The position numbers and the translations under genes are program-made. The notes beneath the pieces are model-generated. The model had not been told where the DNA came from. It made no database searches and saw nothing but the letters and a program-made list of their open reading frames with translations. Of a stretch of 64,000 nucleotides of DNA, positions 23,617 through 62,571 are shown one piece after another (position 1 is the stretch's first letter; every line of letters starts with the position of its first letter). The stretch comes from Sycon ciliatum (taxonomy: Eukaryota; Porifera; Calcarea; Leucosolenida; Sycettidae): NCBI RefSeq assembly GCF_964019385.1, contig NC_088643.1, positions 3,940,329 to 4,004,328 of the forward strand. The letters run 5' to 3'.

Positions 23617-23630
23617 CAGGAAGGGGAGAA
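23617..23630 (+). promoter_or_regulatory. Polypurine tract
   Basis: CAGGAAGGGGAGAA lies immediately 5' of the 3' LTR, where plus-strand priming is expected. Confidence 0.75.
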
Positions 23631-26210: not shown

Positions 26211-26351
26211 TGTAGCGACCTCACTCCCTGAGTATTACGTCATTCTACATACGCATTCGCAAGAAATAAAATCATTCTCTTTGGTCACAACTTCTTCGTT
26301 GTCCGGTTGGCCAAAGTAGCCGTCGTCTAGGGCCCGACGTAAAACCCTAAA
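26211..26351 (+). repeat. 3' LTR of miniature element, 141 bp
   Basis: Intact LTR beginning TGTAGCGACC, containing an AATAAA (GCAAGAAATAAAATC), ending CCCTAAA and followed by CACG. Confidence 0.9.
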
Positions 26352-27118: not shown

Positions 27119-28075
27119 TTACTTGATGTCACAGAGCAGTGCAACGCCGCGTAGTGTCCAGTGATCGGCGGACTGGCCGGGTGTGTTCAGTTTGAGCGTG
27201 GTGATGTAGGTCAGGTCTGTGCGCTGAGGTTTCTTATACACCGGACAGCTGTACGGTTGGAACGGTCCAGTTCTTTTGGCCTTTAGGGACATGTCAGTAC
27301 CGGCCATACCTGCCTGCGCTAACAAGCCAGCATCATGAGTGGAGGGTACCTGCACCACTGCTGGCACATCGGGCGGCGGGTCGGCGTTGGCAGGGGTCTT
27401 GTCACGCGTGCGCGGTGAAAACTTTGATTTTTTGCTGCTGGTGGATTTAGCCTTTGCTGAAGGGTCCTGTTGCTTCTTAGCATCCTGACCAGTCGCCTCC
27501 TTAGCAGCACCTGGAGCAGGCTGCCCCTGTCTTTGAGGCCAGGAGGGCTTCTTAGGCGGTGGCGCCGCCGCCTGTGCAGGTATCACCTGTCGCACACGCC
27601 GTCGTTCCAAGGCCGCATACTTCACCTTGCCCGTGACGGCTGGTGGCTTGCCGGGCGGTGGCGGGGGTTTAATCCAGTGCACGCTCCTCAGGTCCGTGTC
27701 AAGCCTATCTTGCTTTCGCGGCGGCTCGTCGGCAGGTCTTGCCCGGTTCATTGCTCCCGTCTCTATAAGTCTCCTGCGGGTTGCGGCGTCCGGCTTTGGG
27801 TATTTCCCTCCCTTTTTCGGATCAAACTTTGCCTCAGGCTTTTGTGATTCATCCTTTTTGCGCTCAGGCTTCTTTCTTGAGATGGTGGAGGCTGCCGCTG
27901 GTGGAGGCTTAGCAGAATGGGTGGGCGTAGAGGCCGCTGTGTTGGGAGCGCTGCTGGTCCCGGTCTTAGCCTTGTCGACCTTCTCCTTCTTCTTGTCCTT
28001 GGTGCTAGCTGTTGCCGGTGGTGGTGACGTATTGATGGCAAAGATGTGTACCACCGGCAAGGGACTGAACAAGAC
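27119..28075 (-). CDS. DNAH5: Dynein last exon with a long Lys/Pro/Ala-rich insertion
   Basis: Acceptor CCACTGTAG|, then [15 protein letters not shown], which joins exactly to the preceding exon. The conserved ending [18 protein letters not shown] ... [14 protein letters not shown] and the TAA stop are also present. In vertebrate DNAH5/8 about 8 residues separate these blocks; here there are about 259, rich in Lys, Pro, Ala, Ser and Thr (for example [14 protein letters not shown]). The frame is open through all 957 bases and no convincing intron removes the insert. The insert is probably disordered and strongly basic. Confidence 0.9.
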
Positions 28076-30343
28076 CTACAGTGGAAATACGCACACCGAC
28101 ACAGAAAGAGAGAGAGAGAGACAGAGAGAAAGAGAGAGAGAGAGAGAGAGGGGGGGGGGGACACACACACAGACACGCGCCGACACACCGTGACATTTGA
28201 TCATGTACACCCTAAATTCTTACCAAATTCAGCTCGCTAGGCCCGCCTGGAGTACATGTATATGAAATGCATTCGCCCAGTGACTATGTTCAGCCCGCTG
28301 GGCTAAGCTATTTCGGCAGAGTTCATCTGGTAGCCCAGCTGAGTGGCAACACACCCATCTCGATTACCGTATTCACTCGATCCGAGTCCTCTCTTGAATA
28401 GTACCCTGACTCAAACGGCACCCTGCCCCTGAGAGCCAATGAAAAAATATAGCTGCCCCCCCCCCCCCCTCTAATCAAGGGCATCTGCAAGTTTGGTGTT
28501 GTTTTGCTAAAAGACACCCTTAGCAAAAAACGTTATGTTGTAACGGTATTATCGTAAGGGGGAAAATACCGTGATTTGGGTTCGACCTTTAGCAAGATGC
28601 ACGCTATTTTTAGTACGCTGTTGCCACGAGAATAGCTTTGATTTCGCGCGGTACAACCATTTTTGTCACCATATACGCGATACAAGGTGAAATGCGTACG
28701 GACTATGCAATATTTGGCCAAAACACGTACCGTTGGTCACAACGATAAATCAGGCCCCATAACGTTTTTACGCTGCAGCTTCAACGCTATTTGGGTGATC
28801 AAGGTACGAGTACCGTAAAAAATAGCGTTACCGTTGTTTGCTAAGGGTGTCTAATGTTCTTGTCCATGCCATTGCACTGGTAGTTTCAGGATAAAAAAGG
28901 CAATCCTTGTTGCCGTTTCTGTTGAGTCGTGATAGTTTACACTTTACAGTAAACCGTTTAGACTTTAGCTCAAGTTTCAACGGTTTCGTTTATGCTGGAT
29001 CACGGCCCGGGCCGATGTGCCGGCATTGATGAAATAGTGCCCTCTCTTGAATAGTGCCCCGACTGTGATGGACTTTGAAAAAAAGTGCCCCAATTGCACT
29101 AATCACGCGAGCACAGTAACAGGCAGAACAAAGCCAGCATCATATCTACTGGCAACCCGGTTGGTCTAATGTTCAGTAGCCATCCCAGGCTGAAGTGAGC
29201 ACGAAATCATTGACGCGGCTTTTCCGCGTTCCCCGCCTGCAAGCCTACTAACCTTTTGTGGTGATTCCACCAGGCAGGACTCCTCTTTGTCCCAGGCGGC
29301 CCCGTCCAAGAAGAGCCCGTGCACGTAGACGCCTTCCTCCGGTGGTGAGCGAACGTCGGTCTTGTTCATGCTCGTCACGGTGTTGTCCAGTATCACGCTG
29401 TCCAGTGCCCAGCCTGTGTGTGCCCTGGTCACCTCCTGCAGCATAGCGATCAGGATGACGATGCCAGGCAAGCGCACATAGCATCATGGTATACACACAC
29501 ATACTAACACTGATGATGTCATAATGATGTAATCATTGCATAATGATATAATGGCACTGCAATTGCAACCCATGGTACTACTGATGGTGTTGCTGGAGAT
29601 GACGTCGTTGAAATTGCAATCAGCATTCGACAAGTCATGAAACCGGCGCTGCCTCCGATGTACACGACTTGTAGGAGGTACATGTCTGCACAACGTGCTC
29701 ATGGACAGTGAAACCTGTCTAAGACAACCACTCGAGGTCAAGGGACTTTCAAAACTACGGCGTAGTCTCTGTTACCAGGTGGTCTCCTTATCCAGGGTCA
29801 TTCGACTGGACTGAATACTGAATAGCATCCCTTGGTCCTGGTTGCACTTGTTGTAGATGTGGGGCTCTTGAAGTGTGGTACTAAATAGCTTTCTCTCTCG
29901 GTATCGAGAACCACTATTTTCCCAGTCCTTTTGTTTGTGTGGCAGGACGAAAGCGGAGAGGTAGTTCGTCCTTCGGGCCAAGCGACACAGTGGTCTTCTA
30001 GGACAGGTAGTCGCTTCATTCGAGTGGTCGCTTTGACAGGTTTCACTGCAATCATGCGCGGCATGTTCTCAGCTGCAGACAGTCTATACCAGGGCACTCA
30101 TGAATGACATCAGGCCCCAGACAAAGAGGCATTGTTATCAGGAGAGTAACTGATGCTAGTTCGTTCACGTACCTGTCGCATAGCGGTGAGGAATCCCTGT
30201 GGATTGAAGAAACCGGTCATCCAGAATACCTTGGGACGGCCTTTGAAGCACCATGCACGGAACTGAGCATCACGCTCCAGCAGCTCGGTAAACCAGAATC
30301 CCAGTGTGGATGATTGCCACGAGATCTACACACACACAAACAC

Positions 30344-30378
<35 letters not shown>

Positions 30379-33300
30379 AACACACACCGGAGGAAAACAA
30401 ACAGGGCTGGTCGAGGCAGCTCGAAGCAGAGTGCTCGATGCAAAAACGTGCAGAGCAGTGTACACAAACAAGGAAGGCTAAGGTATGCTTAGCTGTAACT
30501 TCAAGTTTCACGCATCCTAGCGATCATCAGACAATGGCATTCATTACTGGAGGTTTTGTGAGCGGACTGAGATCAGTGTTTGGGGAAACATGTGAACATA
30601 CACGTGTAGGTGCTTGTTCACAAATCATGACAGGAGACTAAAGTACCCGACCACAGCGGTGGATCCAGCGACCTCTACAGTATAGCCAAAACTGAATAGC
30701 TGATACACGTACATGGACACGCATATGGTTGCCAGTAGTACATTTACTATTTAGGGAACCCCTGGAACCCCTCCTGGATCCGCCCCTTCAACAGGTGAAC
30801 CGTGGTGAAGGATGCAATGCCGCAGAGGCCAGCTCTGCGGCACCGCAGCAGAATTGTCTGATTGGCTACATGATCGTCTGCTTTGTGTGGAGTGTTACAG
30901 GACCAGCAGGAGCAGTTTTTGATTGGCCCAGCCATACCATAGCCTTTCACTCTTTGTCCATGATATGGAGGGGTACACATCGCCTCCTCAGTAGAAAACA
31001 CGCATTGATGGCCAAAGAGTTGGTCCGACCATGGCTTGACCAGCTGGAGAGGTTCTGCCAGGCCTAGCTGCGGTATTTGTGGAGGCGTAAACGTCAAGTA
31101 CAGAATCATGCGGAATAGCAAAACTTCAAAACCAAAACTCTCCTCTTCACTCCTTCAATCTCCTTTTTATCTCTTAAATAGAGCTAAGTTAATGATGCCC
31201 CCCCCCCATCTCACTCCATGCTTAAGCCACGCACCTCAGTTCCTGACTGGAGTGTTGCCTGAGCTATGCATACCGGTAGTAGTAATAATGTCATGACCAT
31301 TGGCAAGCCGCAGCATTACTAATAGCAGCACAAGCAGCAGCAGCACCACCAGGAGGACCAGCAACAGCAGGACCAGCAACAGCAGCAGCAGCAGCAGTGA
31401 AAGTGTTAAGGGGGCTCAACCCCGAAGAGGGAGCAAAAAATATTATGGTAAATCGATCTGAACTGTGTGTTTTCAGATGGCCAGACACCTAGAGAACTGG
31501 TCTGGGCTATTTCAAGGATAGGTTTATTATGTGGTTCCCCAGCTATGGGGGTGTTATTGTACCTATGTTTTTCGGCAAAAATTCAATGATTTCTCACTAA
31601 AGGCGTAAAATTCCAGTTGGTAATGCTTCAAAAATCCTGAAAGTGGGTATGGAGGGGCCTACAATACTGTCTCCTTTGGAAAATGTCCACAACATATGAC
31701 CAGACCACTGTGAGAGGCCAAGGTAGCCCAGAATGTGATTTGGCAAAACGCGTATTTCAGCAGACCGATCTTTAGACTTGTTTGAATAGTGGAGAATCGA
31801 GACAATAACATGGTCCATTTTATGGTCATTATCTGCTCTTCAAGGCCATAGGAAGGCTCTACAAAAATAGATTTTTATGTCCACCATCTCGTTTCTCCGT
31901 GAGAAACAAAATTTGTGACGGATTTTGCATATTCAACTTGAAAGTCAGATTCAGCATTGTTGACAAAATGAGTGTATCGACTTCATTCAAGCTTCACTTT
32001 GACTATGTAGGGCGAGAAGCATTTGCTATAGACCAATCCCAGACAATACCCCATGCAACAGTCACAACTGAATTGTGTTATTCACATCTTTGTTGTATAT
32101 TGTGAGTATGTACATACATTTTCTAGGGTACCCTGTAAGAAGGCCTTAGCCTAGGCCTGTGGGGATTGCCCTATCAAAAATTTGATAATAATAATAATAC
32201 TATAATGTACATACATACATACATACATGCATGGGTATATCAATGTACAAAACAACGGATTATAAGTATAACGCTTTCAATGAGCAACTTGAGTTGCTTG
32301 GTTACTGCTGGATGCGATGGCTAGCAGCCACTGTTGGTATTGTGAGTTCGCGCCTCCAGTGTGCAGCACAACGTGAATGTTTGAGCAGATAACTGCAGCA
32401 TCATCACGAGTGGTAGAAAGTGGGGACGATGCTGCACCTCCTGCAGCTGCTGGAGTACTTGTGCGGTCTGGAGCAGTGTGTAAAATAGGGGTGTTGGTGT
32501 TGGGTCTTCCAGATGCTAGATGATGTGTTATGCGTTTTGCAATAGCAGAACTCGTTGTGACTAGCACACGCCCATCGCCACCCGGTTCGTGCAATAATCC
32601 AAGGATGCCAGTTCCCTGATTCCTCTCAAATGCCAACACCAGATGATTGTACCTGTAGGCATGATATATAACGTTGTTGTTGTTGTTGTTGTTGTTGTTG
32701 AAGTAGACTTCTACAAACACCCATGGTGCAGCGAAACTCCCACTCCAGCTTGTTTGCTGAGACTGTGACAGAAGCCTGACTAGTGCTGCAATGTGTACTG
32801 CTGTGATTCATGATTTCAGTTGACATTCCTTGCCTTGCCTTGCCTGGGTAATATTGCAGTTCTTCACAACATGCATAACACAATTTTATGCTGCATTTAC
32901 AGTCTAGGTCAAGGCCGAGCTCATGAAAATGTGGCAACTTGACCATGCATAATATTACGTGTCTGTGACTGTCTCTGCTCAAGTTGTTCTACAAGGCATA
33001 TTGCCAATATTTCAATATTCATTTTTATAATATTATACAGATTCCTGTCATAGTTCAATGATACAAGCACAGCCATACTACCTTGAACCCACAGCCTTCT
33101 CCTGAGAAACACAGGCACATGTCAGAACTCACCCAGTGCAGCCTTAGAGTTCATAGGATCCATGCTTTCCACTCCATCCAGCATGAGACTCAGATGTCTG
33201 ACCAAATTCTCCTGCCCACACATAGAACACTTCACTGGCATGTCCCTATGCTGTTTATATATACTGGCTGTTCCAGACCACACTCATTACTCACAGAGAT

Positions 33301-36300
33301 CAAGTCCCTACTTGCAGACACTACACTCTGACTCCACTATCTCCAGGTACTGCAGGTACAAGACCAGTTTTTCTCTCACAGTCGTCAGTAACATTTTTAT
33401 CTGGCGACTGGAAAAGAAAAAATAGATATCGTTCCAAGTGCCACTCAAGTGGATGCACTTGAACTTGAGAGAAGCATGTCACTTACCTGCGTTCTGAGAC
33501 TGGTACATGTATCACTGGTAGCTGGGCTCTGGACAATCTTGCAGGTTTACTTGTCTTCACTGGCAGGCGAGACTGAGAAAAGGGCATATCTGAGCTGGAA
33601 GTTAGAACTACACGACCTGAAGAAGCTTGACCTGAAGAAGATTGAACACGCTTTGTTCCTGAGCGCCCACGAAAACGGCCGTGCCTATTGATAACTACAA
33701 GTACTTGACGCGAAACTCCATCGATCGCCGACATCCAGCAAACCAAAATGGAAAACACAAAACGTTCAAACTGTTCAAGGACTGCAGTTTCTTTGAATTC
33801 TCGCAAAATAAACTTTTGAACACGACTATTTCTCGCAAAAAAACTTTCTCCAGCCGCGGACAAAATGTTTTCAAACGCGAAATTTTGCATAAAATCATGC
33901 CCAGATTTCGATGCGCGCGCAGAAGTACTGAGCCCCCTTAAAGGGGAAGTCCGGTGAAAATTTTAAATTTCACAGTCCGTAGAGTTCGGGGCGCTGAGTC
34001 GAATGGTCTTTGTCTGAGGAGGCTGCGGCCTATGGTTCGTCAGATACGCCCAATCGAACATGTGCGAATTTGAGCGCGCCTCACCCAAATCCAGGTGATG
34101 ACGTCACAGCGTGCAGCCAGGTAGCCACACCATCTAGTTGTGTACAAAATGGCCAAATTCGGAGCGCGTTCGATTGGGGAACCGTTTGTCGCAGTTTCTT
34201 CGGACCAAGACCATTCGATTCAGTGTTACAAACACTACGTACCCTGTGATTTTCAGCTCGGTAAACCTCGAGGTTATACCGTATTTTAGCCGTTTCCGAG
34301 TTGGACTTTTTCCGTCAGCCTGCAATGGCCTCTGTAGACTATGGCTCTAGCAATGCGCTGCGTGCAGGCTAGCTGTAGTGCAGTCAACAAACTCATCACA
34401 CACGGAACTACTCCCGCACTGCCGTGCTGGGGTAGCTACAACAAGACTCGAGTCACAAGACTCAGAAAACTAGTCAACACACAGACTTGTCATGTACTAC
34501 ACTCGTATCAGTTCATGTAGTCAGAGAACGTGCGTTTCTCCTTGCCGGTGCCGGTGGTTGTGCTTTGAGAAAGAAAATTTTAGTTTTCCGCTCCAGTCCC
34601 ACCTCATTATTTTATGCTACAGCGATGAGTGCACAACCGTGACAAGTGACAAAACAGCGAACAGCTCCCGGACCTAGAACTTTCAGATTCCATAGCGTTG
34701 CGAGCGAAGAGCCGTGCCCGAGGTTCAAAGAGCCTGCACTGTTCTCCAATTGAGTAGTCGGAAATATGCCAAGTTCGCACCAAAACATCACCATGTGCCA
34801 GGCTACTGGAGTCTAAGCGAATCGGTATGGAACAACATTTAGAGTACTCGCATCACTCTTCTCCATTTTGGCAACCCTGCTCTCCAGCGATCTGATAATT
34901 ATATCAGCCTCGTCTGCAATAGCTGCTGCTTCTTCATCAGTCGGAAACTCAGTAGCGCTCACTCTTGACCGGCCCGCGCGGCCATTTCTTCAGCTGAATA
35001 CCGAGGTTCTCAGCCCCAGACCAAACTCATGAAGGTCAGCCATGGCTGCATCCTCACTCTCACAAGGAGTTAGGTCTTCGGGGTCGCTTGCACCACCTAA
35101 TATCAGTCGCCAAATCATTTGAAATAGCACTGACACTATTGCTTTCACGCACTCCTTTTGACCTAGCTGCACGCTATGACGTTGCGGAGGGTGTGGCGCG
35201 GCCGCATGACGTCATGGCGCAGCCCCCGAAACTCAGTTTTTCAAACGGAAATATCTCGAGAACGCTTTGTCAGAGACACGTGGGACCAACACCATTCGAC
35301 TCAGCGCCCAAAACTCTACCGACACTGAAATTTAAATTTTTCACCGGACTTCCCCTTTAACGTTCTCTCCCACTAACCTTCTTCCACAGGGTTGGAATTC
35401 GAGCATCGTACATATTGTCCAATGCGTCACGTAGATTCTACACAGACAGGGGCATGGATACAGGGAGCACGAGGAGACATGCACATGCAGTTATTGTAGC
35501 GAGCAACAACACTCGGCAGAACAAGAACCATACTTACAAATTGCCCTTACTCGCCAAGTTCCATTTGTGGACCCATATTTGGTAGAATAAAACACGACGT
35601 TATCAAATTGAGGCTAATTTCGGGCTCCTAAGCAATGTGTTCCTAATTTCATATCGCAATGGAAAGGAACAAGAAAATTAACATCCAGGGAAGTGAACTG
35701 AAGATATGCATTAATTGTGCAACCAGCTGCTACGTACATGCAGGGGGGGTCCCATTCCCTACCTCATTCATGATTATGGTGCCATCAATGGCCAGCTTCA
35801 GATCAAGTAGCGTGGAGCGTACTGCGGAGATCACACGCTGCATGCGGTCGATCTCCTGCCGCAGGAAGATGTTCATGGGTTGCAGGTGACCCATGGCGTG
35901 CAGTCGCGCCTTGACCTCGTGCGGTACGTAGGCGGCGGGCAGGCGTTTGAGCATGTCTTCGGCCTGCTTGAAGACGACGCTCTCACGTGTAGCCCCACCG
36001 CTGCCACCGGAGTCCTTTGGCTGGATGCTGAGAATGATGTTCATGCAGGTTTGTGCCGTGTTGGTTTGGTAACTAATCACAAACACACATCGTATACCAA
36101 CGTCAGATCACAAACACATGATTGCATAGCAGCATCAGGTCACAAAGACATGAATGCATAACAACATTAGTAAAACCAGCATGCAAAGCCACGCATGGCC
36201 AAGAACGACAGCACAAGCAACACAAAATCAGCACGGAGATGCAACAGCTGGCACGTAGCAATAACACAATCGAGAAGTGCAGGAACGGCACAGGGATTGC

Positions 36301-39300
36301 GAATCGGCGTCTTGAGCGTCCTATCACTTCCCGTTGCTCCGTACATCGGGACAACACTCGGAAGGCCCCTTCAATAGTCGACTTACGAGTACACATGTTT
36401 CACTTTATGTGCATCAGAACTATCACTGCTACCGATACTGTCCAAAATTCTTGAGAAGGTCGTGCAGAAATCGTTGGTGGAACATGTCGCACGGATGAAC
36501 ATCTTGCCAGCGACCCAATTTGCGTTCCGTCATGGGCACTCTACGGAAGATGCTCTTGCCCTACTAACTGAAAGAGTCGACACTGGGCGAGATGACGGTC
36601 TAGTTGTGGCAACCTGCCTTCTAGATATGTCGAAAGCCTTCGACAAAGTCAAGCACAGCATTCTTATCCAGGACCTTTTTGACATTGGCGTTACTGGAGG
36701 AGCACTGACTTGGTTCAAACATTACCTGTCAAGTCGCCAACAGCAAGTGCGCACTGGTACCGGACTCGGCAGGGTTGTTACATGCACCTGCGGTGTTCCG
36801 CAGGGTTCGGTCCTGGGGCCGCTGCTCTTCAGCATATACACTAGAGACGTACCGACTGTTACCTGCCCGACTATGTCAATCCAGTTTGCAGACGATATAG
36901 CCTTGACTTCCACCCGCCGCAGCGCTGACCTCGTTTCTTCTGAGCTCACAACAGCTGTCTCTAACCTAGCTCGCTGGCTAGCCTCCCGTGGTCTCATCCT
37001 CAACGCCAACAAGAGTCAGCTCCTTGTCTTTGCAGGATCCAATGGCCAGAGTCCCAACGTTGTGGTAAAGTGCGAAGGCATACCCGTGCCAAGCGTCACC
37101 AGTGCCCGCTACCTTGGCATCATCTTGGATGTACGCATGTCATGGCAGCCCCAGGTCGATGCGAGCATCACGAAAGCCAATAAGAAAATTGGAACTCTGT
37201 GGCGGGCACGAAAGTCGCTAACACTTGCTAGCCGTGTGCTGTTCTTCAAGGCAGCTATCATGCCGGATCTACTGTATGGGTCCGTTGCGTTTAGCCCAGG
37301 TCTCACACAGGCCCAGACCGACCGGCTCCAAGTAGCACAAAACCGTGGGGCAAGAGCAGTTTATGGCCGGCCGGGGTTCTCTCGTGCCAGTGATCTCCTG
37401 GAACGCATGCAGGTGTTCAGGATTGGAGAAGTACATCGGCAGAAGGTCCTGGTCTTTGTCTGGAGGTGCATACACGCCAGTGCGAGTCCATCTCTCCAGG
37501 AGCTCTTCGTACGCTGCGCGGATCGTAGGACGCGCCTGGATCTCGCCCTGGGGCTCCGTCTACCAGCTACGCGAACCCGCGCCGGACGATCTCGCCCTGC
37601 CTCCCGAGGTAGTGCCCTTTGGAACGTCCTACCGGATGCAGTCAGAGTACTGTCGTCTCTCAGCAGCTTCAAAGCTGCCGTCGTACCGTATACCCTCCGA
37701 TCTTCCGGATGTTATGATTAGAAACTTGCCCTGAGACAGCTTCCTGTCTGTGATTGATTTTCACTGTTTACCATTATTATTTGCCATGGCGACCCCCGTA
37801 AGTCCGTAACTGGCAGGGCAGGGTTGGGCCTTTCATCCTCCCGATGTTAGTAGCAAGTACTCTCGTTAGCAGTAACTGTTAGTACTTTGTTTGTTTTTTA
37901 TTTTATTTTATTTTTTTATTTTATTTTATTTTCTCTATTTATTCTCTTTACCAGGCGTGGGCCATCCCCTGGACAAACAAAATGGGTGCCTTATTATTAT
38001 TTTTCTGTTTCTGTTTTAATGACAGTCCACTGCACGCCTGAAAAAAAAGTACTTAGTTTATTAGGCGGGTTACAGAACTATCGACTTATCGTTCGCTGGC
38101 TTACTTGTAGTTTGATAACGCTTCGCTCTTCATTGAGATATCTACCATTCTCTCTTTTTCTCCTTATTTTCTCCCCAACCCTCCTTCCCTGTAACATAAT
38201 AACATATTCGCTGCCTTGTCATTGAGCATTTGTGCTCGTTTGGATTTGCGAATTCAAATAAAGTATACAAACAAACAAAGAACAGCCCTCCCTGGACTCC
38301 GAACGCCTTCCTCTCCTTCCTCCTCCCCCCTAGCCTGAGGCTCCCTCCCCCCTAGCCTGAGGCTCCCTCCCCCTCAGCGGTCGGCTTACAGGGGGTATAT
38401 GTATATCAGAACAGTATCTATATCAGAACAGTATGTATATCAGAACATTATGTATATCAGAACAGTATGTATATCAGAACAGTATGTATATCAGAACAGT
38501 ATGTATATCAGAACAGTATGTATATCAGAACAGCACTACACCACCCCCCCCCCCTACCCTTCCCTGAACCCCCTACCCTTCCCTGAACCACCTGCTCTAC
38601 CCTACACACCTACAGTTTTCTACACACACAGTAATGGATGCAGGCAGGCACGCCAAATACAAAGTACAGCGCTTACGCAATATCAGCATTGACGTGCAGT
38701 CCAAACACCTCGGGCGTGTCATTGGCCGGCAGCTGGTCGATGTGGTCCATGAAGTCCTGCCATATGCGAAACTTGTCACCAGTGATATCCACCGGTATGG
38801 TGTAACCGGGCATACCGATGTAGTTACCATACGCAAACATGCAGGCATTGAAGTAGGTCTGTGCCAACAGTAACATAACAAGAGTACCAGCACACACAGT
38901 CTGTCCAGCCTTGCCACCATTCCAAAGCAAGACACCCACACTGACACTATAATGTATACAAAGGCAATTGTCTCCCATGTTAATGTATACAAATGTGTTG
39001 GTCCAAGGCAGGACAGTTGGACAGCCTGCACACATCATGCGAGAAAGCTGCAGTGGAAACCAGCACAGTAATCGCTGACAAGATGGTACAGTTGGGTACA
39101 CACACTGAGCAGCCACGGCCGTCGTGACTGTCAACATCTCACCAGGCACGATTGCCTGGGCTCACGGATATAGATGGTAGTCGGATTTAATGGGTTCAAA
39201 GGTCAGGAGTTCATGGGTTCATAGATTCATGGGTCCATAGGTTCATGGGTTCATAGGTTCATGAGTTCGTCAGTAACAGCGAGGTATGCAGGTGCTACTG

Positions 39301-42300
39301 TCCACGAGGGCAATGTGCTACAACTCAATGCAAGCGTGTAGTCTGTAGATATCTACTCAGCCAGTCAGCCAGGATTGAATGTCACCATGCACCACACTGT
39401 ACAAATGAATGCTGTGTGTGGATGAGAGCATGTTGTGTGTGCATGAGCGATGCTTACTCTGGCGTAAGTGTTCAGGAGAATCTTGTCGAAATCGTCCGTG
39501 ACACGACCGCCATACTGCACCTCACCAATCATGTACTGGATAGTTATCCATGAGACACCCTACAGGAACACAGCACACAGGAACACAGCACAACGAGAGT
39601 GAGACTCAACAACACCTCAGTCTCAGTAACACACAGCAACAACAGTAGAAACTACACCATGCCCAGTGGGGGTTTTCCCGTTTTCTTTCTACTTCAATGA
39701 CATTGACCCACTGGGAATAGGAAAGTACACGAGAAAGACAAATTTTCTTACACCAGGGAAAATCTCCTACTTCCGTCATCATATTACCAGCTGCTATCGG
39801 AATCGTGAGACTACGGACATCATAAGCTGCCAAAGGAATGATGTCGGGGTTGACACAGGGAACAAAGTACCTCCGCAAAGAGGAGTTTTTGATTCAGAAC
39901 ATCAGACCATGGCGGCCAGTGGCACTATTGTAACGGAATTGCAACCTGCTGAACAGCTGCCCCAAGCGGCCCAGTGTTCATAGGTCTGGGGCAGCGCACA
40001 GCCCGGAACGGCACTGTGGTTACCTTTTTCAGATCCATGTCATCGAGGTGGTTCTGAAAGAACTGCATAGTCGACGTGAAGTCGGACTGGTTGAACTCGT
40101 ACGGGATGTTCCAACCCAGCGGACCGAACTTTCGACGTTCCTGCACGATTGTATGCAGGAATGCCAGTGCGAACAGCATTGGTCTCCACTGGGGCATTCC
40201 ATTGATCTCCAGGTGCTCCTGTGTGATGCCTGGGTGTAAGTACGCAACAAGGATATGACATGAAGTTGATTGTTCCAAGGATATGACAGTTAATTAATTG
40301 AAGGACACTTGGGTGCATACAAGTACTTGAGCACACATCAAGGGTATGATAGTTAGTAGAAGGACAATGTGATGGAAGCTTGCCTATTCAGTCTAACTGT
40401 GTCAATGCCAGTACCTAGACAAGGCAAAGGAGAACGTTTTGTAGCAGGGACATTTGTATAGTGCTGGAATGTTGAATCAGTATTCTAGCAACATCACAGG
40501 ATGGGCTGGAAGAGGCCTAAAAGGGACAGAGATGAACAGTAAGGATAAGAGGGAGGGAAGCGTGGGTCTGTGGGAGGTGGGGGGGGGGGGGGGGGGCAGT
40601 GTGGTGGCAATGTGGTGTTGGGAGAGTGGTACTGAGTAAGGAAAAGAATAACGTGAGTAATGAAAGCAGAACGGAAGAGGATAGTGGACAAAGACAGAAC
40701 AATGCACTGGGTATACTGGGTAAGTGAAACAGGAGCAAAGCTCTGGGGCCAATTCCACTAATCCACTCACCTCTGTATGTTCGCTTCAGGCCTGGCTTGA
40801 TACCGTGCGGCGGCTCATTGGTATACTTAATGCCAATCTGCAGCAGGGAGATGGGGAACTTCGGGTGGACTTCGGTGGTGATCCATAGTCTGAAATCGGG
40901 ATTGACTTTCTCCGCTTCAGAGACCATGGTGAAGAGTTCGTCCATGAAGTCCAGACCTAAGTGACAGTTCTGCAATAGAGCCCAGGCGCCATTGCGCATG
41001 TCCTGCTCCAGAAGACGCCGAGCGTGCACGTCCTGTCCCTGCCCCATGCTGATGGCGTGGCACTCCAGCCGCTTGCGCTTGGCCAGGCCCTCGATGTTCG
41101 ACGTCGGGTCAGAGCCCATGGAGAGTAGGCAGATCAGCGGTGTGTGCGGGGTACTCTCGTTCAGCATTTCCTACATATCAACAGCAACAACACCATGTGT
41201 ACAAGCGAAGGCAGAAGCACAACTACCACTGGGACAACATCTAGAATTGACACAAGTACAACCGTATTATATTAACCTTAAGAAAGGGTTTGCTCCCCAC
41301 ACCGGAGCTCGCGCTATTCCGCCGACTTTCTTACAAATCATCGCCGAAGTCGCAACCACTATTTCGTTATATTAACCTTGGTTGTAGAAAGGTCACTGTT
41401 TCAGAAAACGGTGTCCTCGTGACCTTGTGACAAGCTGTCAACCAACAAGTACAACCATAGTATCTGAAACGGTAATCCATTCTTGGGAACATGAGACTGT
41501 GCTGTTCTCTCAGCTTTGAAGGCTATGATAACAGATGGTTTACCGCCGATCGGGCAAACACGAGTTTCAAGCAAGTATCAGCAATTTTGTACCAACTTGA
41601 CATACGTTTTTGCCGGTGTTTGCACCATGATGGTTTGAGACTATTTAAAAAAAAAAAAAAAAAAACATGCAGTGAATGGGAATTTCGGTCTTTGACCACT
41701 TTGTGGTGGGTCTGATCTACTCACCTCCCACCGCTTCAGGAGCTGCATCTGCGCCTTGATCCTTAAAGGGTGGTGGCGTTCCGGCGGATGCTGAAAACTC
41801 GGCCTCCAGCTGACTCTCATATGCAAACCGTGAATTTTTCTACATGCATTCCATCTACTACAAGTTGATCTAACGTTAGCTGTTCCGCAATTCTCACCTC
41901 TATATCGAGAATGTACCCTTCGGAGAAGTCCTCTCCCAGCGACTCGGCTATGTACTTCATGGCCTGTGCGGTGATGCGGTCTGGACACCAGCTACGCACT
42001 AGCAACAGCAAACTGAACATACTGTCATGCGGTGTCGAGTAGTCGCTGGGCACTTTAGCCTCCTCCGGCGCTGGCTTGTCAAACCAGGTCTTCCAGAGCT
42101 TGGGCTTCTTCAACACCTGCATGCATACACACATATTACGCATACACACAGCATGGGAAATTGCCAGCTGGGGTGAAATGTAGCTTAAGTAGAAGCAGCT
42201 CTACTCCTTTTCGAAGAGTTCTCAATACGTTGACAAGCCAAGCGACTGGTAGATGTACGTATTGTCCTTCACTTGAGCACACTTGTTCAGTTCAATACTA

Positions 42301-45300
42301 TGTCCAACTAAGCCTTATGTCCAACACAACGGGGACGTTCAAGCCCACATGGTCATCTTGCACATGTGGCCCGCGTGCACACACACAGTACCACATGAAA
42401 CACAATTCCACCTTGTTAGGGCTGCCTAAGGACACCCTGGAGAGAGTATTTCGCAACAAACACACGGCTCATAGCCCACGATGAAGAAGATATTATCCAA
42501 AGGCTTGTCTCACGGTTTCGGTTATCCCGCGGAAGCGCTCCAGATTCTCCAGCGCAACGAGATTTAACCATGTGCCGTCCAGCATCCAGGTAGGTTTGTT
42601 TTTGGGTATGGAATTGATGTCCAGTGCTGCGCCACCCTTGATCAGCACCATCAGCTCTTCATGCTTAATCTACAGAAGGCAGTCACAAACACAGGCACAG
42701 ACCAGGGACGGATCCAGGAGGGGTTCCGTGGAAACCCCTAAATTTCGTAAATGTACTGCTGGCGACCATATGTGTGTCCATGTATATGTATCAGCTATAC
42801 AGTTTCGACTATACTGGAACCCCTGTAGAGATTGCTGGATCCGCTGATGCAGAGGTCATTGTTTAGCAATACACCACCCTTGAGCAACCCTAGTGGAAGT
42901 CACAACATACCGGTGCACACAAGGGACATTCAGTAAGCAACATAAAAGCATGCTGGGCTTGATCTTCAAAACCAGAGTGGTGATGATGTCCCTCAAACCA
43001 AGTGGTGATGTCATAAATAGTCATCACCTCTCGACGATGTCATGGTGATGTCATGGATACATACTAGTACCACACTGCAAAGCAATGCATTGATTTCAAC
43101 AGGATGCACTGCATGTACTAACCTTTCTGAGATCAATATCAATTTTGAGAGTCAGCAGAAGAGTAAACAGGAACTTGTCCTGTTCGTATAGGCCTCGCAT
43201 TGTATAGCGAAACACCTCCAGTGTTAGGTAGTTGACTATGTTGTCGATGCGAGCATCGGCAAAGTAGGACTTCTCCGAGCGTTCCATGGACTTGTCGAAT
43301 AGTCCCAGGAACTGCGGTAGAGATGTTTGGTACATACAGTTGACCATGCTCATGTTTGTGATCAAGAAGTAGAGAATACTGCCGCGTGTGGCCACTGGTC
43401 GGAACTCCTCACGCGCAGATGTGATCTTGACTTGTGTGGCCGCAGCAACCTGTACATGGGTATAGAGAGACGGGGACACGGGAGGGATGGAAGAGAGACA
43501 GGGAGGAGGGGGATGGAGCCGAGGGGCGGGGTAGGTGAGCAATAGTTATGGGAGGAAGAGATGCAGCAGGGGACAAGCGGACAAGAACAAGAACAGCTGG
43601 AATGAGAATAGATAGCAAGGTGGTGTGGTGTGTGCTGATGTTGCGGAACATTCCCATCTAATCATGACGGACTACACTAGAGTACCACATAGCAGTGTTA
43701 CTGTGTATGTGTATGTTCATCTGCTTGGTCTCTCCCACATTTATGTGCAAGAATGGCAGTGTTTTTTGTTTGTTTTTATGTAGAAAGAAAAAAGGACATA
43801 TAGAAACGAGTTTTTGTTTTTGTTTTGTTTTTGTTTTGTTTTTACTGAATGCCTCAGAACCATCAGATGCTGCACAGTGGGGGCGGTGGCATATTGGATG
43901 GAAGTGGGGGCGGGGCACAAGTAACCGAGGCTCCTCCGACCAAAGGTCTCGGATTCATCGTTACTCATGTGCGCCGATACGAAGGAGAAAAGAACATGTG
44001 CGTGAGTGTATACTGTTAAAGACAAGAGGAGAGGGAAGGTCTGACTACTGGCATGGTATTGCTGAGCAAGATGAGCATATTGCGTTGTAGAGTCTACATT
44101 CCACGCCGAGACCCCTGGTCGGTCGAGTTGCTCCCTGTACATCGGCACGTCGTCCCTACATCCCCTGTGTCTTGTTTTGTGTTTGTCTCCACATGTCTCT
44201 TTGTAGGGCTGTGTTCCCAATAAAAAAATAAAAAAAATAAAAATTCCAGGACAAGATTCTATGCCAAGCTATCACTACCATTCCAGTTTGCCATTAGTTA
44301 TGCAAACGTGCACACACCGTGTACACACATATGCACACACACACACACATGGGCATGCCCACACGCCTACACACACACACATGCATTAACAATACACAGT
44401 CAACGCAGTTGCTTACGACAAGCTTTTCTTGTACGTCCTGTGCCGTCAGCTTTGTTGTTCTAAGAACATCGATCAACGTCTCGTCATCGACTAGGGAACC
44501 CTGAGTGGACGTCAGTCGATACAGAACGTTGTCCTCCAGCTCCTTCATCTTTCTCTTGTTGGACGTCACGTCTTCCAAGAGATCTACACGCTCTTGCTCC
44601 AGCTCTTGCTTCTCCTTCAAAATTACCAGACCCAGGAGCTGATCGCCGAGACCTGGAATATGGAACAAGAAAGAGAGATCATGGGGGCATAGACAGCTGT
44701 AGCATGTTATCAAGAGTACATAACCTCCCCAGAGTGTGCAACGCCTGATCCAGCTCTGCACAGGGTCTTGGTTGAGCGTAATCGGATCTTTGCGTCATAA
44801 TACCGTACACATCTTAGGTGAACCCGGGGAGTCGCGGGTACACTCGGATCAAAAACAACGGTGCCCTGCCTTGAGATCGGGCTTGCGGTGGTGTGGAGTG
44901 TACGCATGACATTAGAAGATCCGATTCCGCCAAAACCCTATGCAGAGCTGGATCGGCGTTGCACACTCTGGGGGGGGTTATGTACTCTTGATGTTATCTA
45001 GGCATGAAGTTGCAAGACAGTTGTTCCATTACAAAGGAGGAATACTCAATGGATACACCTTCCAAGCGCCAAATGCCAAAGATATTGCTGGCACGTAACA
45101 CCAACACAACACGCAATGAAGCCTTTCATTATGATGGTAAAGTCAAACATATGCCCAGAAAGTGGTGATGTCATCCTGACAGTGATGATGATGATGATGA
45201 TGATGTCATCATGCCTATCTGAAACTTACCCTTCATTGTGACGGTGAAATCGATGATGGAGGTTTTGGCCGAAATCTCGGGTGTATACGACGGATTGGGA

Positions 45301-48300
45301 AGTTTGGTTGTGATGTAGAGCATAAAGCCCTTCATGACATCCACCTCCTTGTCACCGACTTTGACCTTTAGAGACTTGCCACTCTTGATGAAGTTCTTCT
45401 CCAGCACATTGTCGAGTGCCGGGTCAAGCTCTTCGCCAATGTCTTCGATGAGCAACGGGTTACCGAGAGACAAGCTATCTTCCAAGTGTGTACGGAAGTA
45501 TTTGCTGTTCAGTGCGGTCACCTTTTATGGATCAAAAAGACACAGCAGCAAGAAATGCTTAGATTGCAATTTCCCCGCAGGATGCACACAGTGTGCAGTG
45601 CTCAACAGCTTGCAGGCAGAGCGCAATACAGCCAGACCTCGCTTATCTGGTCCTCTTTCATCCGGATCCCTCGCCATCCGGAAGAAAATAGCTGGTTACG
45701 GATTTACAGCATACGTGCTGCATCCAACAAAGCCGGCGTTCGGTTGTCTGGTTCCCTCGCCTACCCGGATATTTTAGTGGAAAGCGGATGTGTGCGGTTA
45801 AGCGAGGTCTGACTGTACACAGAACAATAAGGGAAAGGCTAGTTTGTCAATACTCTGATTTTCATGCTTACGCAATCATCAGGCAACAACCATGTTCATG
45901 TGATCAATGTCATGTGATCAAGGTCATGTGATCAAGGTCATGTGATCAAGGTCATGTGATCAAGGTCATGTGATCAAGGTCATGTGATCAAGGTCATGTG
46001 ATCAAGGTCATGTGATCAAGGTCACGTGACCAGGGTAGACCATGTAGGTGATCCGTGTAAAAATTGGATTGCCCGGATGAGTTGCAGGGCATTTTTGGAA
46101 AATTTCGGTTTGGATTATCAAAACCGCACAAGAAGTTTCAATGAAGATGATTTACTGTCACATGTGGGACTACACTCTGATCGGTAAAGAAAGAGCATAT
46201 GCTGGCTGTCAACATACCCGAAGACGATTCTTGGCTTCTCTGTTCTTGACCCAGCGCTTGCCTTGCCCCTGTGGGTCGATGAGCAATGGGTAGCGTGCTG
46301 CCGTCGTGACGATGATGCCGTTCTGGATGGATAGCTCATCGTTGGGCAGACCTTGCAGTCCCCATTCACCAATCTAGCAGTTTACATACCAACAGGCAAT
46401 ACAGGCATGCATAGACACATATGCATTAACTTACAGCTGTCTTACAAATCCCTGCATCTAACGTTACGTCCCTCAAAAAAAATCCGTGCACTTTTCACTC
46501 GTACAAAGGTATGTGTCAAAGTCCGAGGCTTCCATATAAAAAAAACACAACTGTGTGGCAATGGCATGGCCAATTGGCCATAGATATGCACTGACCGTCG
46601 TAGAGTCGACTAGCTCATCAATGATCTCTATGGTAGAAGTGAGGGGTATTCCCCTGTGCTTGATCTCCTTCTTCCAATCCTTGACCAGCACGTCTCGGAA
46701 CTCCTGATTGAATGGTCCGGCGTACGACAGGAAAGCCGTGCAAAGGAGAACGTCTCCGACAAGTCTATGCAGTAACACAATTTGGATACAGCCGTTCTCA
46801 GGTGATACAAACGTTTCAAGCAAACAATGAGAGAGAGAGAGGAGGAGGAGGAGAAGGAGGAGGAGGAGGAGGAGGAGGAGGAGAGGGAGAAAGAGAAAGA
46901 TAGACATGTACACACACAGGGTATGTATACGTATCTTACCGTTGAATCTGCTCGTCAAACTCCTTACTCTGCTGTGTCCATCTCTCCTTCTCTCCTGAGA
47001 GACCTTCAATCAGGGCCGTGGCTGAGCCCATCTTGCGACGACATAGCTCAGCGTCGTCTATCAGGGCCTGTCGAGCGGGAATTGCAGAAAACAAAGAATA
47101 AACACCACCACTACAAAATCGGTCCTTCACAAACATACTTGTAATAGCAAGAGTCCATAACCCAAGAGTATGCAACTGTGATCTCTTTTCTATAGGCCAA
47201 CCGCGCGGCGCGCTGCCTTCATTACATCATTCAGCTGCAGTCCGCGCACTGCGGAAAATCAAACACCGCACTTTCCCTCTAGTTTGAAATGAACTTTCGT
47301 ACGGAACTGGAGTTCACGCGCCAGAGTTCAGAGATTGTGTACGTACTGGAACGAATCGAGCAAAAACGGATGGGCTCGTGCGAGAAAATGAGAGTTTGAA
47401 TGCATGCTTTCAGAGCGTGATGAAGGCAAGTTACGTAATGAAGGCAGCGCGCCACGCATGCACCCATAATCACAGTTGCATACTCTTGGGTTATGGACTC
47501 TTGGTAATATTAAACATGGCCATTTTCAGCTTCTGGTATACAGGCACCATGCATGCTTCGTATATCAGTCCCATGTCACGGGATGTGTTTTGAATAGAAC
47601 TTGATCACAGAAAGCACTGCACAATGGATTGACCAGTAGTTGAGACTGAAGCAAAATGTCCCCGCAATGCAAGGGTATCCAAACTTGAGAAGTGAAGGCT
47701 AAGGAAAACAATACTAGGCTGTACAGAAAGCAACGAAGTTCGTTATAACAGAAATGCACTCACACCATACAAGCAGCAAGTCATGCCTGGTAAGTGGCCA
47801 ATGACAGTATGAGTGAACTTGGTTTACACGGGGCCCTACAAGATTTGGTTTGTTATAAACAAAAACTTGGAGCTATTAAGGGCCAATTTTGTATGGGTTC
47901 AAACAGGGACATGGACAAGGGTTCGCCATATCACGAAATTCGCTATATACGGGTTCGTTATAAGCGGAGTCGACGGTATAATTATACAAAGTGAATTCCA
48001 CTGTACATCACTTCTCAATTGCCAGCGCGAATCATTACATTGACCATATTCTCATTACCTGTTTCTCGGCCATGGCGTTTTCATACTTCATCTGCTGCTC
48101 CTTGAGCTGTGCTTCTTTCTCGTCCAGCTGAGCCTGTGCCTCATCCAGCTCTTTCTGAGCTACATTCAACAAGGCTTCTTGTTTCAACAGATTAGCCTGC
48201 ATGGGCAGAAGGAGAACAAGAGTGCTAGAATGAAATGTCCAGTCACACCCAGGGTCTGACCCAGTGGCCTGGCTGGTCAGTCCTAAAGACATGTGTGGTC

Positions 48301-49960
48301 TCTCATAGCAGTAGTGGTGTCACATTATGCCATGTCGCTTCAAGGGTCAGAGGCACCAAGTGGGGGTACAATGATTACGTGTGAACAACACTACACGCAC
48401 GCACGCACGCACGCGCGCGCACACACACACACACAAACACACGCCGCAGTTACCTTGAGTGGCAAGATCTCCTTATTAGTGGCGTAGAACTTAGCCATGG
48501 CTTTGGTCCAGGAACACAGACCAGCCACGTTGCCGCAGACTTTCTTCGCCGTCAGCGCATTGTAATCTTCGGCCTCAAAGTACGGCTGTAGCAGCTCGAC
48601 GATCTCATCGTTGATAAGATCTTTTGGGAAGTTCTGTAGGGCTTGTAGGAATCCACCTCCACTCATCAGCTGGGGAGATCATTAGAGCACAAAGAGGAAT
48701 GCCATCACTTTTTTCTTTAAAAAATTTCTACAAACCTCTTTTATGGGCAAAAACTAACATGCCATCACCATTGTACACAGCTATCCAAGATAAGTATCAT
48801 TCTTATTGATCAGGCTAGCAGCATCAATCACCACCGAGCACCTTAGAATTGATTTCAGCATAGTAGAAATTCAGGATTGTGTGTACGCAATACACATGTG
48901 CTCACATGGGCACACACACGTACACATACATGTATGCACGTGCACACACACGTGCACACACATGTACACACACGCATACACACACACACACATCACAGGT
49001 CACTGACCTTCATCGAGTCCGTCCAGCTTGGCTTGCACGTCTCGTGGTCCGGATCTTTCCTGAACGGACTGATCTTGCGTTGCATCAGCACCAGGCAGCA
49101 GTCCATGATTCTCATAATAAGGTGAGGTGGCTTGGACAACTTGCGTACAGTTGCAATATCAGCAGGCTTGATTGTCTGTAGCGGAAGACAGCAGCGAAGA
49201 GTTTTTACTGATGACACAACCTCCTCGAAAGAAAATGAGAGACAACAAAATCCAAACAGCGTAGGGGGGGGGGGGGGGGGTAGGGGCTCTAGGGTGGAGC
49301 CCGTGCTGGTGAGGCGCGCCAGCAACGCCACCATCTGATCATGGCGTTCGCGCTAGTTTGCGTACGCCTGTGGACTGACAGCAACATTTCAACTCACACT
49401 GAAATTCTGAAAATTCGCAGTCACGGTGGAGAGTTGTGAAAAAGAAATTCTGAATAAAATCAATTTCGTTGCTACACTAAAATAAATTTCCATATGCGTT
49501 ATTCAAAATGGTTCAGTGGGTTCATTGCATGAACAGAATACAGTCAGACCTCGCATAACTGCACACATCCGTTTTCGACAAAAATATCCGGATAGGCGAG
49601 GGAACCGGATAATCGAACAGACATACTGTATGTATGCAAGCCATATTATGCTGTAAATTGGTAATCAACGATTTTCTTCCGGATGGCGAGGGATCCGGAT
49701 AAAAGAGGACCGGATAAGCGAGGTCTGACTGTACTTCCTTCATTAAGACAGAGCTCTGGCATTCAAATTGCCCGCAACACAGATATTGTACAGGTAGACA
49801 TATCCTAGAACTGAAAGAGAAATGTCTAGAGTGCTATGGCAACTGACTAGCAAAGCTGCGGCAGCCTCTTCCAGGGCTGGTTTAGCTTCATCCAACTTAA
49901 CTTGAGCAACTTTACGATCAGCCTGAAAGCAAACAGCGCAGATAGAAACGCACACGCACC

Positions 49961-50022
<62 letters not shown>

Positions 50023-50068
50023 CACGCACAAATATGCACCCTATAGCAAGTATTTTACTAGATACTTT

Positions 50069-50148
<80 letters not shown>

Positions 50149-51008
50149 GGTTACGACTGATCTCCTGTCAGCGGCCTCAGACTGGAAACTTCTTGTCGAC
50201 TCAGTTAGTGCAAAGATTTCTTTCCCTAGCTGTGTTGCACTTACCACCCTAAGACCAGATATAGTTCTGTACTCTAAGAGTCGTAGGATTGTATTCTGGA
50301 TGGAGTTGACAGTTTGTGCTGAGGACAGATTCAGTGTCAGTAACTCGCGGAAGGACAGGCGGTATGCGGATCTGGCCGATCAATGCCGAGCAAACGGGTG
50401 GCAGGTCGTTTCTTTTTCGGTTGAGGTAGGTGTGCGTGGTTTCATCCCGGACTCTCTTCGGAGGGCTCTGAAAGCGCTTGGATTTTCTAATCGAAGAATA
50501 AAATTTATTTGTAATTTGTGCAGTAAGACGTCTCTGCGAAGCAGCTACATCATCTGGTTGCGGCGTCAACAAAAACACTGGTCGGAAGATCCACTTTTCT
50601 GAGGTACTGTATGTGGGGCTCCGTTTATTGAGGTGCGTTGAAATTTATTCTCTTTATCTTATTATTTCTTTTCTATAATTTCCCCATATGAGTTCCTATC
50701 AGTTGCTGTGAACACCTTGAGTGGAGAGCGCTTGCTCGAGCGTTGAACCGGGTTCTTAATCCACCATATCCAGTTCGCAAGGCTGGGCGGGGTTGTGAGC
50801 AGGCTTTCATTTCATCTTTTCTTATTATTTCTTATTATTTCTGCTTTTCATCTCATTACAAAAATTCTGCGCTTTTTCTCCATCTGCGCATAAAATCTAG
50901 ACTGACAACCTGCTTGTTAAATCATGCACCTGCTTTCAGGCGTAAAAACCCTGTTGTAGAGGTCTCAGTCCTCATTTGTTAGACTTACCTGTCTTTATAA
51001 ATGTAACT

Positions 51009-51080
<72 letters not shown>

Positions 51081-52240
51081 CTCTATCTCGGGAAAGCCAA
51101 GTTTGCATACTTCAAATAGAATCCACCCAAACTCAATGATGTGAATTGCACACGATGGCCAGTTTTACCTGGCTGCTGCAGGCCTCAAAGTGCAGGAGCC
51201 GGATGTAGTACAGTATACGTGCACTCACCCCAATAGCTACGACGATGGCCTCCGCCTTGTCCTTGACCACCTGCACCTCGGCCTTGACTTTCTCTGCCGC
51301 CTGTGCACTCTCCGTTACCTCACTCAACACCTAGTTAGTCAATACACACGCACACGCATACACACACACGAACACACATACACACACGAACACACACACA
51401 CGCACCCACCCACACACACACCCACACGCACACGCATACGCACGGTCGGAGACAAACAGAACATATGCGTGGATGGATGAACAAATGGATGAAGAGACGG
51501 ATGGCTGCCAGAACAGGTGGTTGGAAAGGCAGATGGACAGACAGTCACATCAACAGACCCAATCTCTTACCTACCTGTACACACAAAAACACGCACACAC
51601 ACACAAACACACAAACATGTACACACACACACACACACAAGTATTTACCCACCTTTTCGGCCTTAGTGGACGCTATGGCCAGCTCCTTCTCCTTGACTAC
51701 AAGCTCCTTGGAGAGCTTAGCCACGCTATGACCGGCCTCGGTCAGCTTATCCAGACCCGTCTGCATACGCTCGGCTAGCAAGCCAATGGCTGAGTGCTTC
51801 TCAGTGTATACAGACTTATAGCTGTTGATGAAGGATAGGTACGATACCGGGGTGACGTGGGTCGTACGCCGGAATCTACACACCAGTCACAACCCAATGG
51901 AACACAAAGACACACACACCAGTGTGCCATTTCTATGCAAGGATGCAAGCTGGAGAGGACGTTAAATAAGCCTCTGCCAGAGCAAATGGCACCGCTATGT
52001 GATACAATGGTGAGGATGTGGACTGTGGAGAGTTGCAGCTGGCAATGAGATGATGGAACGAGCTACAGTTGTAGCTCTGTATTATGTACACCAGTCCCCA
52101 GCATTGCAGCGAAGCATAGCTGGTATCATGGCAATAGTGTTGGAAATTGCACAAGCACAGACACGAGTACAGTGTCCTCCACTCTAATTTTCTTTTCAGG
52201 ATCCTTACAAGCACGCCCAGGACACGTGGCACACCATCGG

Positions 52241-52284
<44 letters not shown>

Positions 52285-52911
52285 GCTGCTGCTGCTGCTG
52301 CAGGCCCGTGGCAGCCCCATTTTGGTTGGTCCGGCAAGATCCGACTTCGATGCCCCCGAGCCCATACTCATTTATACATGTATGCCGGTAGATGTACATG
52401 CATGTAATCGTGACCATGCAGAGTGACAGTCATGTAGGGCGAGAAAAGGAAGAAGGACGTTCTGCATGAGTCAGGAAAAAGGGCATCAGCATGTTGTGTC
52501 CGTCCAAACAGAACTTGTTGAAGCATAGCAACAGTATCTAAATGCATGTGATAAAAGAACCAAAATGTGCCTTTCGAGGAGGAGAAAGGATATTGCAATG
52601 GAATATCTTTGGTACAAACTCTATCTAGAAAGAATTGGAGGAAGAAAATAATCAATACATTTCAGGAAGTACAGAGTAGAAACATTCACGGGCATGACTG
52701 TCCACATGACCTTCAGCAGGGTCATACTCCTGATGACATGTACATGTAGGTCTACTACCGGCACTACTTTGTACTACCTCTATACTACTTATTGCACACA
52801 TCATCATCATGGGTGGACATCCTGAGCTGCTCCCATGTGTGAGCTCCCGCTTTTTTGCCGAATATTGGTCCGGCAGCTGCCGGACCTGCCGGACCGCCTG
52901 CTACGGCCCTG

Positions 52912-52943
<32 letters not shown>

Positions 52944-61049: not shown

Positions 61050-61141
<92 letters not shown>

Positions 61142-62495: not shown

Positions 62496-62571
62496 CTGAA
62501 CACACATACATGTACATACATGTACATGCATGATATTAGATAAACCTTGTTTAATATGTTGAAAACATAGT

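What the first reader, a model, noticed from the sequence alone, without database searches (positions are those of the whole stretch)
27119..28075. About 250-residue basic, low-complexity insertion inside the conserved C-terminal domain of an outer-arm dynein heavy chain
Seen: [15 protein letters not shown] and YSCPVYKKP, which are about 8 residues apart in vertebrate DNAH5/8, are separated here by about 259 residues rich in Lys, Pro and Ala, in one open 957-base exon. Known: this domain packs on the motor ring and its length is tightly conserved. Inference: the insert is a disordered loop that could contact tubulin (acidic tails), neighbouring dyneins or docking proteins, and would be lineage-specific.
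Basis: partly seen in the sequence, partly recalled or inferred. Interest (0 to 1): 0.78.

Follow-up and report, generated by a model that had tools for sequence, protein, structure and literature searches.

The report
Sponge cilia motor with giant loop
In a sponge, one gene for a motor protein that beats cilia carries an extra stretch of about 250 mostly unstructured, positively charged residues in a surface loop that is short in the related proteins looked at here; it looks like real protein-coding sequence, but what it does, if anything, is untested.

Summary
Window 28075-27119 (minus strand) is the last exon of a DNAH5/8-type outer-arm dynein heavy chain; 259 residues (28030-27254) separate HIFAIN from YSCPVYKKP in one open frame. 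The other 31 exons seen keep frame, and the gene pairs with that of the calcareous sponge Sycon ciliatum, which lacks the insert. The same spacing is 33-53 residues in 286 of 289 homologues measured; here 290. The insert looks coding: 1 of 5000 shuffles stays open, 0 of 5000 match its Lys/Pro/Ala richness or low hydrophobic content. Splice pairs inside it are no better than in shuffles, and none with sites as good as the gene's own restores a normal loop. No transcript was available. One premise fails: this loop is the most length-variable site of the domain's last 141 residues. Best reading: a translated, disordered, basic arm grown at a tolerated loop of the CT-cap. Contact with tubulin or neighbours is untested, and the net charge is no more than base composition gives.

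The parts
27119..28075 (-). last exon of the dynein heavy chain gene (318 codons and TAA stop), holding the insert
   Evidence: open frame; acceptor and donor joined in phase; Dynein_C match on residues 272-315, E 7.3e-11
28031..28075 (-). [15 protein letters not shown], strand on the upstream side of the loop
   Evidence: tblastn of the Sycon protein, 76% over 17 residues; strand 212-219 in the model of homologue P0014, low confidence
27254..28030 (-). the insert: 259 residues, Lys/Pro/Ala-rich, net charge +30, no cysteine
   Evidence: absent from homologues
27122..27253 (-). YSCPVYKKP...ALLCDIK, conserved C-terminal end of the domain after the insert
   Evidence: tblastn of Sycon 77% over 44 residues; PDB chains 8j07_n0 and 9fqr_I3
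29253..29435 (-). preceding exon ([12 protein letters not shown]...LVESPQK), spliced to 28075
35378..35437 (-). 60-base exon ([20 protein letters not shown]) missing from the first gene model, recovered with in-phase splice sites
27119..62498 (-). dynein heavy chain gene, 32 exons in the window, from AAA3 to the C terminus; the 5' edge of the first exon was not set, and the 5' part of the gene lies beyond the window
   Evidence: gene model; tblastn of Sycon P0062 matches the exons in order except 49922-49848, which rests on the splice model

Best explanation
The gene encodes a functional-looking DNAH5/8-type outer-arm dynein of a sponge close to Sycon ciliatum. A pre-existing, length-variable surface loop in the CT-cap (between the HIFAIN and YxCP strands) has grown from about 9 to 259 residues of translated, intrinsically disordered, basic Lys/Pro/Ala-rich sequence. 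It works as a flexible arm: both ends leave the folded cap next to each other, so the cap can fold normally and the arm hangs free from the face of the AAA ring. The most likely effect is weak and non-specific: excluded volume plus transient electrostatic contact with acidic surfaces nearby. Shown here: coding-like open exon, intact gene in the part seen, position in the natural variable loop, absence in the relatives fetched. Inferred: translation, disorder, unperturbed folding, and any contact.
For: The exon, its splice sites and the conserved blocks from AAA3 to the C terminus keep frame. Insert: 1 of 5000 shuffles open; K+P+A 44% against 28% expected (0 of 5000 as high); hydrophobic 12% against 17% (0 of 5000 as low); Cys 0 against 6 expected (6 of 5000 as low). 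FoldIndex -0.24 against +0.15 for the rest of the model. The loop is the main insertion site in homologues (51 of 177 rows, maximum 14). Internal splice pairs are no better than chance (145 and 106 of 300 shuffles as good), and of 165 in-frame pairs that keep both flanks only 4 leave 40 residues or fewer, each with a defect.
Against: No transcript or peptide was seen. Synonymous codon choice in the insert is not exon-like (log-odds 0.005 against 0.216 in the other exons) and GC is flat over codon positions (0.60, 0.58, 0.59 against 0.55, 0.36, 0.67 in the exons), so it may be young or of non-coding origin. Long open frames do occur in this gene's introns: up to 387, 392 and 412 codons, which I put down to the 18-base tandem array, then 176. 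Net charge is not above the base-composition expectation. The single-sequence model is of low confidence everywhere, conserved flanks included (mean pLDDT 46.5), so it says nothing special about the insert; the beta part of the homologue model is weak too (block means 33-62 from residue 181), so the hairpin geometry is only suggested. The gene's end branch is three times Sycon's (0.42 against 0.14), so relaxed constraint on the whole gene is possible.
Confidence: 0.62

Rival explanations
1. The insert is a functional polybasic arm that reaches acidic tubulin tails, a neighbouring outer arm or the docking complex, and tunes force or arm coordination through the CT-cap.
For: Net +30, pI 10.5. 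The CT-cap controls force and run length in cytoplasmic dynein (PMC4339881, passages), and the beta-chain CT-cap takes part in arm-to-arm and linker contacts in outer-arm arrays (PMC8500839, passages). Amino-acid make-up is non-random beyond base composition.
Against: Net charge itself is what the dinucleotide composition predicts (z 0.5). In the passages seen, the contacts named involve the beta CT-cap, not that of the DNAH5-type chain. No relative of the insert was found that could show constraint (queried with the insert, queried with Sycon's C-terminal end).
Confidence: 0.2
2. The insert, or parts of it, is an in-frame intron (exitron) removed from most mRNAs.
For: A GT-AG pair (28028 to 27248, 780 bases, summed score 7.5) removes the whole insert in frame; partial pairs score 11.5, 11.3 and 10.7. 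All are within the range of the gene's modelled introns (leave-one-out minimum 2.3, median 14.4). A ctenophore-like fragment (P0002) appears to hold an intron in the same loop.
Against: Of 165 in-frame pairs that keep both flanks, only 4 leave 40 or fewer residues between HIFAIN and CPVY: the 780-base one leaves 1 residue (11 in the modal form) with a donor score of 2.7, above only 1 of 30 modelled donors; two use a donor scoring 0.4, below all 30 (minimum 1.9); one uses an acceptor scoring -5.8, below all 30 (minimum -2.5). Pairs as good as the observed best arise in 145 of 300 shuffles, and for removals of nearly the insert's length in 106 of 300. None of 2000 intron windows reaches the insert's codon score; insert GC 0.59 against 0.47 in introns.
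Confidence: 0.12
3. Assembly or gene-copy artefact: the stretch was joined wrongly, or this is a decaying duplicate of the real gene.
For: The own-genome search did not complete, so a second copy is not excluded; longer branch than Sycon.
Against: The exon is one open frame with matching flanks; no nucleotide match of the insert longer than 22 bases elsewhere in the window; the modelled exons keep frame and splice sites.
Confidence: 0.06

Closest known systems
Axonemal dynein heavy chain DNAH5/8 (outer arm), e.g. Sycon ciliatum P0062; human 8j07_n0 (DNAH5) and bovine 9fqr_I3 (DNAH8-type by sequence; its deposited label is Cilia and flagella associated protein 57)
   Same: same blocks in order from AAA3 to the C-terminal domain; 73-74% identity to Sycon without the insert
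   Different: 259 residues in place of about 9; among homologues fetched the longest in the same place is about 23, apart from one apparent retained intron
Length-variable loop of teleost DNAH5 (for example P0084, P0100, P0171)
   Same: insertion at the same site, Gly-rich
   Different: 10 to 14 extra residues instead of about 250
Dynein CT-cap as a regulator of force and run length (rat cytoplasmic dynein, PMC4339881; passages seen)
   Same: the insert lies in the same C-terminal cap over the ring
   Different: that work removed the whole cap from a cytoplasmic dynein; the passages seen do not concern a long loop or an axonemal dynein

Membership tests
Axonemal outer-arm dynein heavy chain, DNAH5/8 (Chlamydomonas gamma) type | AAA3-AAA6, stalk and microtubule-binding domain and Dynein_C in order | tested here: met
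   the Sycon DNAH5 protein matches in order from AAA3 to the C terminus; Dynein_C PF18199 above cut-off. The names of the inner blocks are recalled, not from a domain search
Axonemal outer-arm dynein heavy chain, DNAH5/8 (Chlamydomonas gamma) type | groups with DNAH5/8 of animals | tested here: met
   named hits are mostly DNAH5/8; sister to Sycon with 100% SH-aLRT (no other dynein class was put in the tree). The best solved relative is human DNAH5 and the bovine DNAH8-type chain
Axonemal outer-arm dynein heavy chain, DNAH5/8 (Chlamydomonas gamma) type | N-terminal tail that binds intermediate chains | not testable with these tools
   beyond the window; own-genome search did not complete
Axonemal outer-arm dynein heavy chain, DNAH5/8 (Chlamydomonas gamma) type | short (about 9-23 residue) loop between the HIFAIN and YxCP strands | tested here: not met
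   259 residues; a length trait of the homologues seen, not a condition for membership
Exitron / retained intron | in-frame GT-AG pair with sites like the gene's own whose removal restores a loop of normal length | tested here: not met
   4 of 165 pairs leave 40 residues or fewer, each with a defect; pairs no better than in shuffles. Removal of only a part of the insert is not excluded

The most novel reading that the evidence does not exclude
Calcareous sponges of this lineage have built a tethered, microtubule-associated-protein-like polybasic arm into the CT-cap of the outer-arm motor itself, giving the motor a second, regulatable contact with the axoneme that tunes force or arm-to-arm coordination in choanocyte or larval cilia.
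Probability: 0.12. Interest if true: 0.75.

Novelty: new variant of a known kind. Interest (0 to 1): 0.42.

Why it matters
The motor part of outer-arm dynein is highly conserved. A 259-residue arm on its C-terminal cap, if translated, would show that this face can carry a large appendage in working cilia, would mark the loop as a natural site for tags or regulatory grafts, and would offer a natural experiment on the CT-cap, whose removal changes force and run length in a cytoplasmic dynein (PMC4339881, passages).

Tried and rejected
Looked for relatives of the insert: two protein searches with the exon, Pfam and PDB sequences gave only the dynein flanks; a third protein search with Sycon's C-terminal end listed no near relative beyond Sycon. 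These searches need shared five-residue words; one search scored only the 7978 candidates sharing most words and listed 120 of 570 hits, one search listed 120 of 1868. Copies of the insert elsewhere in the window: no nucleotide match longer than 22 bases, best protein match E 0.032 to Pro-rich sequence. Exonised ancestral intron: considered because the ctenophore-like fragment P0002 seems to hold a phase-0 intron in the same loop (inferred from comparing P0002 with P0065); the insert's GC (0.59) and amino-acid make-up do not look like this gene's introns (0.47), but the neutral synonymous codon choice leaves the origin open. Tandem-repeat expansion: none listed in 27254-28030. The mixed alignment A2 was not used for folding because MAFFT spread the insert over the upstream domain; the exon was folded alone instead, with low confidence throughout. 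Paper searches for an insertion or a disordered or lysine-rich stretch in dynein heavy chains showed nothing on point in their listings; passages of PMC10266980 and PMC10267688 were seen and not used.

Full report
What is there. The minus strand of the window holds the 3' part of an axonemal dynein heavy chain gene. Stop-free frames were joined by in-phase GT-AG sites into a model of 31 exons and 2232 residues, from AAA3 to the stop codon, without internal stops. A tblastn of the homologue P0062 against the window shows the exons in the same order and adds one 60-base exon at 35437-35378, which splices in phase; so 32 exons. One short exon of the model (49922-49848) has no tblastn match and rests on the splice model alone. 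The splice sites are predictions; no RNA was available. The last exon, 28075-27119, is preceded by the acceptor CCACTGTAG|GTC and ends in TAA. Its first 15 residues and its last 44 match the C-terminal domain; between them lie 259 residues, 28030-27254.

Whose gene it is. The nearest proteins are P0062/P0064 (73% identity), named 'scpid...' by their source; a paper uses that prefix for the calcareous sponge Sycon ciliatum, and names of the form 'm. ...' and 'comp ... seq' for the sponge Oscarella carmela (PMC6526912, passages seen). In a tree of 27 rows without the insert, the window and Sycon pair with 100% SH-aLRT, and the two join P0193, whose name has the Oscarella form, with 99% (quick method, no bootstrap). 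The window is therefore most likely from a calcareous sponge other than Sycon ciliatum; the species is not known. The window's end branch (0.42) is three times Sycon's (0.14). Sycon has the short loop (NSTAGKDPRFYHCP).

Is the spacing unusual? Searches listed 60, 120 and 120 proteins (of 60, 570 and 1868 hits), 292 different ones. The distance from the tryptophan of DGAxW to the cysteine of CPxY, found by a pattern, was measured in 289: 202 have 40, and 286 lie between 33 and 53. Two values of 5 are pattern mis-hits (really about 49 and 54), the value 33 (P0277) is also a shifted hit whose true form is modal, and 109 (P0002) looks like a retained intron. The window has 290. The three not measured show short loops by eye. 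Among solved structures, 60 of 72 matching chains were listed for the homologous C-terminal domain P0014; in the 57 matched in one stretch the chain is at most 31 residues longer than the query over that stretch (my arithmetic on the listed ranges). Over the last 141 residues, 256 of 292 proteins gave a usable stretch (P0002 and stretches outside 111-239 residues were dropped), 177 of them unique; measured against mouse DNAH8 (P0255), with the window added without its insert, the loop is where insertions are commonest and longest: 51 of 177 rows, up to 14 residues. The next sites have 43 rows with at most 2 or 3 residues and 12 rows with at most 6.

Is it coding? Of 5000 dinucleotide shuffles of the insert, 1 stays open. 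Lys+Pro+Ala reach 44% against 28% expected (0 of 5000 as high), hydrophobic residues 12% against 17% (0 of 5000 as low), cysteine 0 against 6 (6 of 5000 as low). The frame's codon score exceeds all 2000 intron windows sampled. Against this, synonymous codon choice is neutral (0.005 against 0.216), GC is flat over codon positions, and introns of this gene hold open frames of 387, 392 and 412 codons (which I put down to the 18-base tandem array) and then of 176. So the stretch may be young, relaxed, or of non-coding origin. Splicing inside the exon: of 165 in-frame GT-AG pairs that keep both flanks, 4 leave 40 residues or fewer. One (28028 to 27248) removes the whole insert but leaves a single residue where the modal homologue has 11, with a donor scoring above only 1 of the gene's 30 modelled donors; the other three use a donor or an acceptor scoring below all 30 modelled ones. 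Pairs as good as the best seen arise in 145 of 300 shuffles, and for removals of nearly the insert's length in 106 of 300. Partial alternative splicing cannot be excluded without RNA.

What it would look like. FoldIndex is -0.24 for the insert against +0.15 for the rest of the model. Folded alone, the exon gives mean pLDDT 46.5 and one short helix (97-105), but its conserved flanks score as low, so this adds little. In a model of homologue P0014 the loop lies between strands 212-219 and 228-232, a part of low confidence; the best structural matches of that model are solved axonemal dynein chains. So the picture of a disordered arm hanging from a hairpin is reasonable but inferred.

What it could do. 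The C-terminal cap covers part of the AAA ring; removing it from rat cytoplasmic dynein raises force from 1 to 6 pN and lengthens runs (PMC4339881, passages seen). In Tetrahymena outer-arm arrays, the beta-chain CT-cap takes part in tail-to-head contacts and in one groove for the alpha linker (PMC8500839, passages seen). By sequence, the DNAH5-type chain corresponds to Tetrahymena chain A, named alpha in entry 7kek, and to Chlamydomonas gamma (my inference); in the passages seen, the CT-cap of that chain is not named as a contact. A basic arm there could reach tubulin tails or neighbours, but its net charge of +30 is what its base composition would give (z 0.5), so charge alone is no evidence of selection. 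I therefore favour a tolerated flexible arm with weak contacts, and give 0.2 to a specific regulatory role.

Verdict. Its importance hangs on transcripts, on relatives of the same lineage and on a binding test.

Noticed in passing
16558-24095: LTR retrotransposon of BEL/Pao type just downstream of the dynein gene: two 468-base direct repeats 99.8% identical around one long open frame (17060-23419) with Peptidase_A17, DUF5641, DUF1759 and integrase zinc-binding matches above cut-off and a reverse transcriptase match just below it. Probably a recent insertion.
   Followed up: partly
36378-37718: plus-strand reverse transcriptase frame (RVT_1, E 1.6e-31) inside a dynein intron, antisense to the gene.
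   Followed up: partly
54568-56812: about 124 copies of an 18-base repeat (TATAGAGGACACTTCCCC) in a dynein intron, with open frames of 383 and 403 codons on the plus strand that are no evidence of a gene.
   Followed up: no
25304-25426 and 26229-26351: 123-base direct repeat, identical copies 0.9 kb apart, downstream of the dynein stop codon; possibly ends of another mobile element.
   Followed up: no
63079-64000: GC-rich 11-base tandem array (64% GC) at the window's end, upstream of the first dynein exon seen.
   Followed up: no
P0002 (homologue, 204 aa): ctenophore-like fragment with an apparent phase-0 intron read through in the same loop (inferred by comparison with P0065), so an intron can sit at this site in another lineage.
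   Followed up: partly
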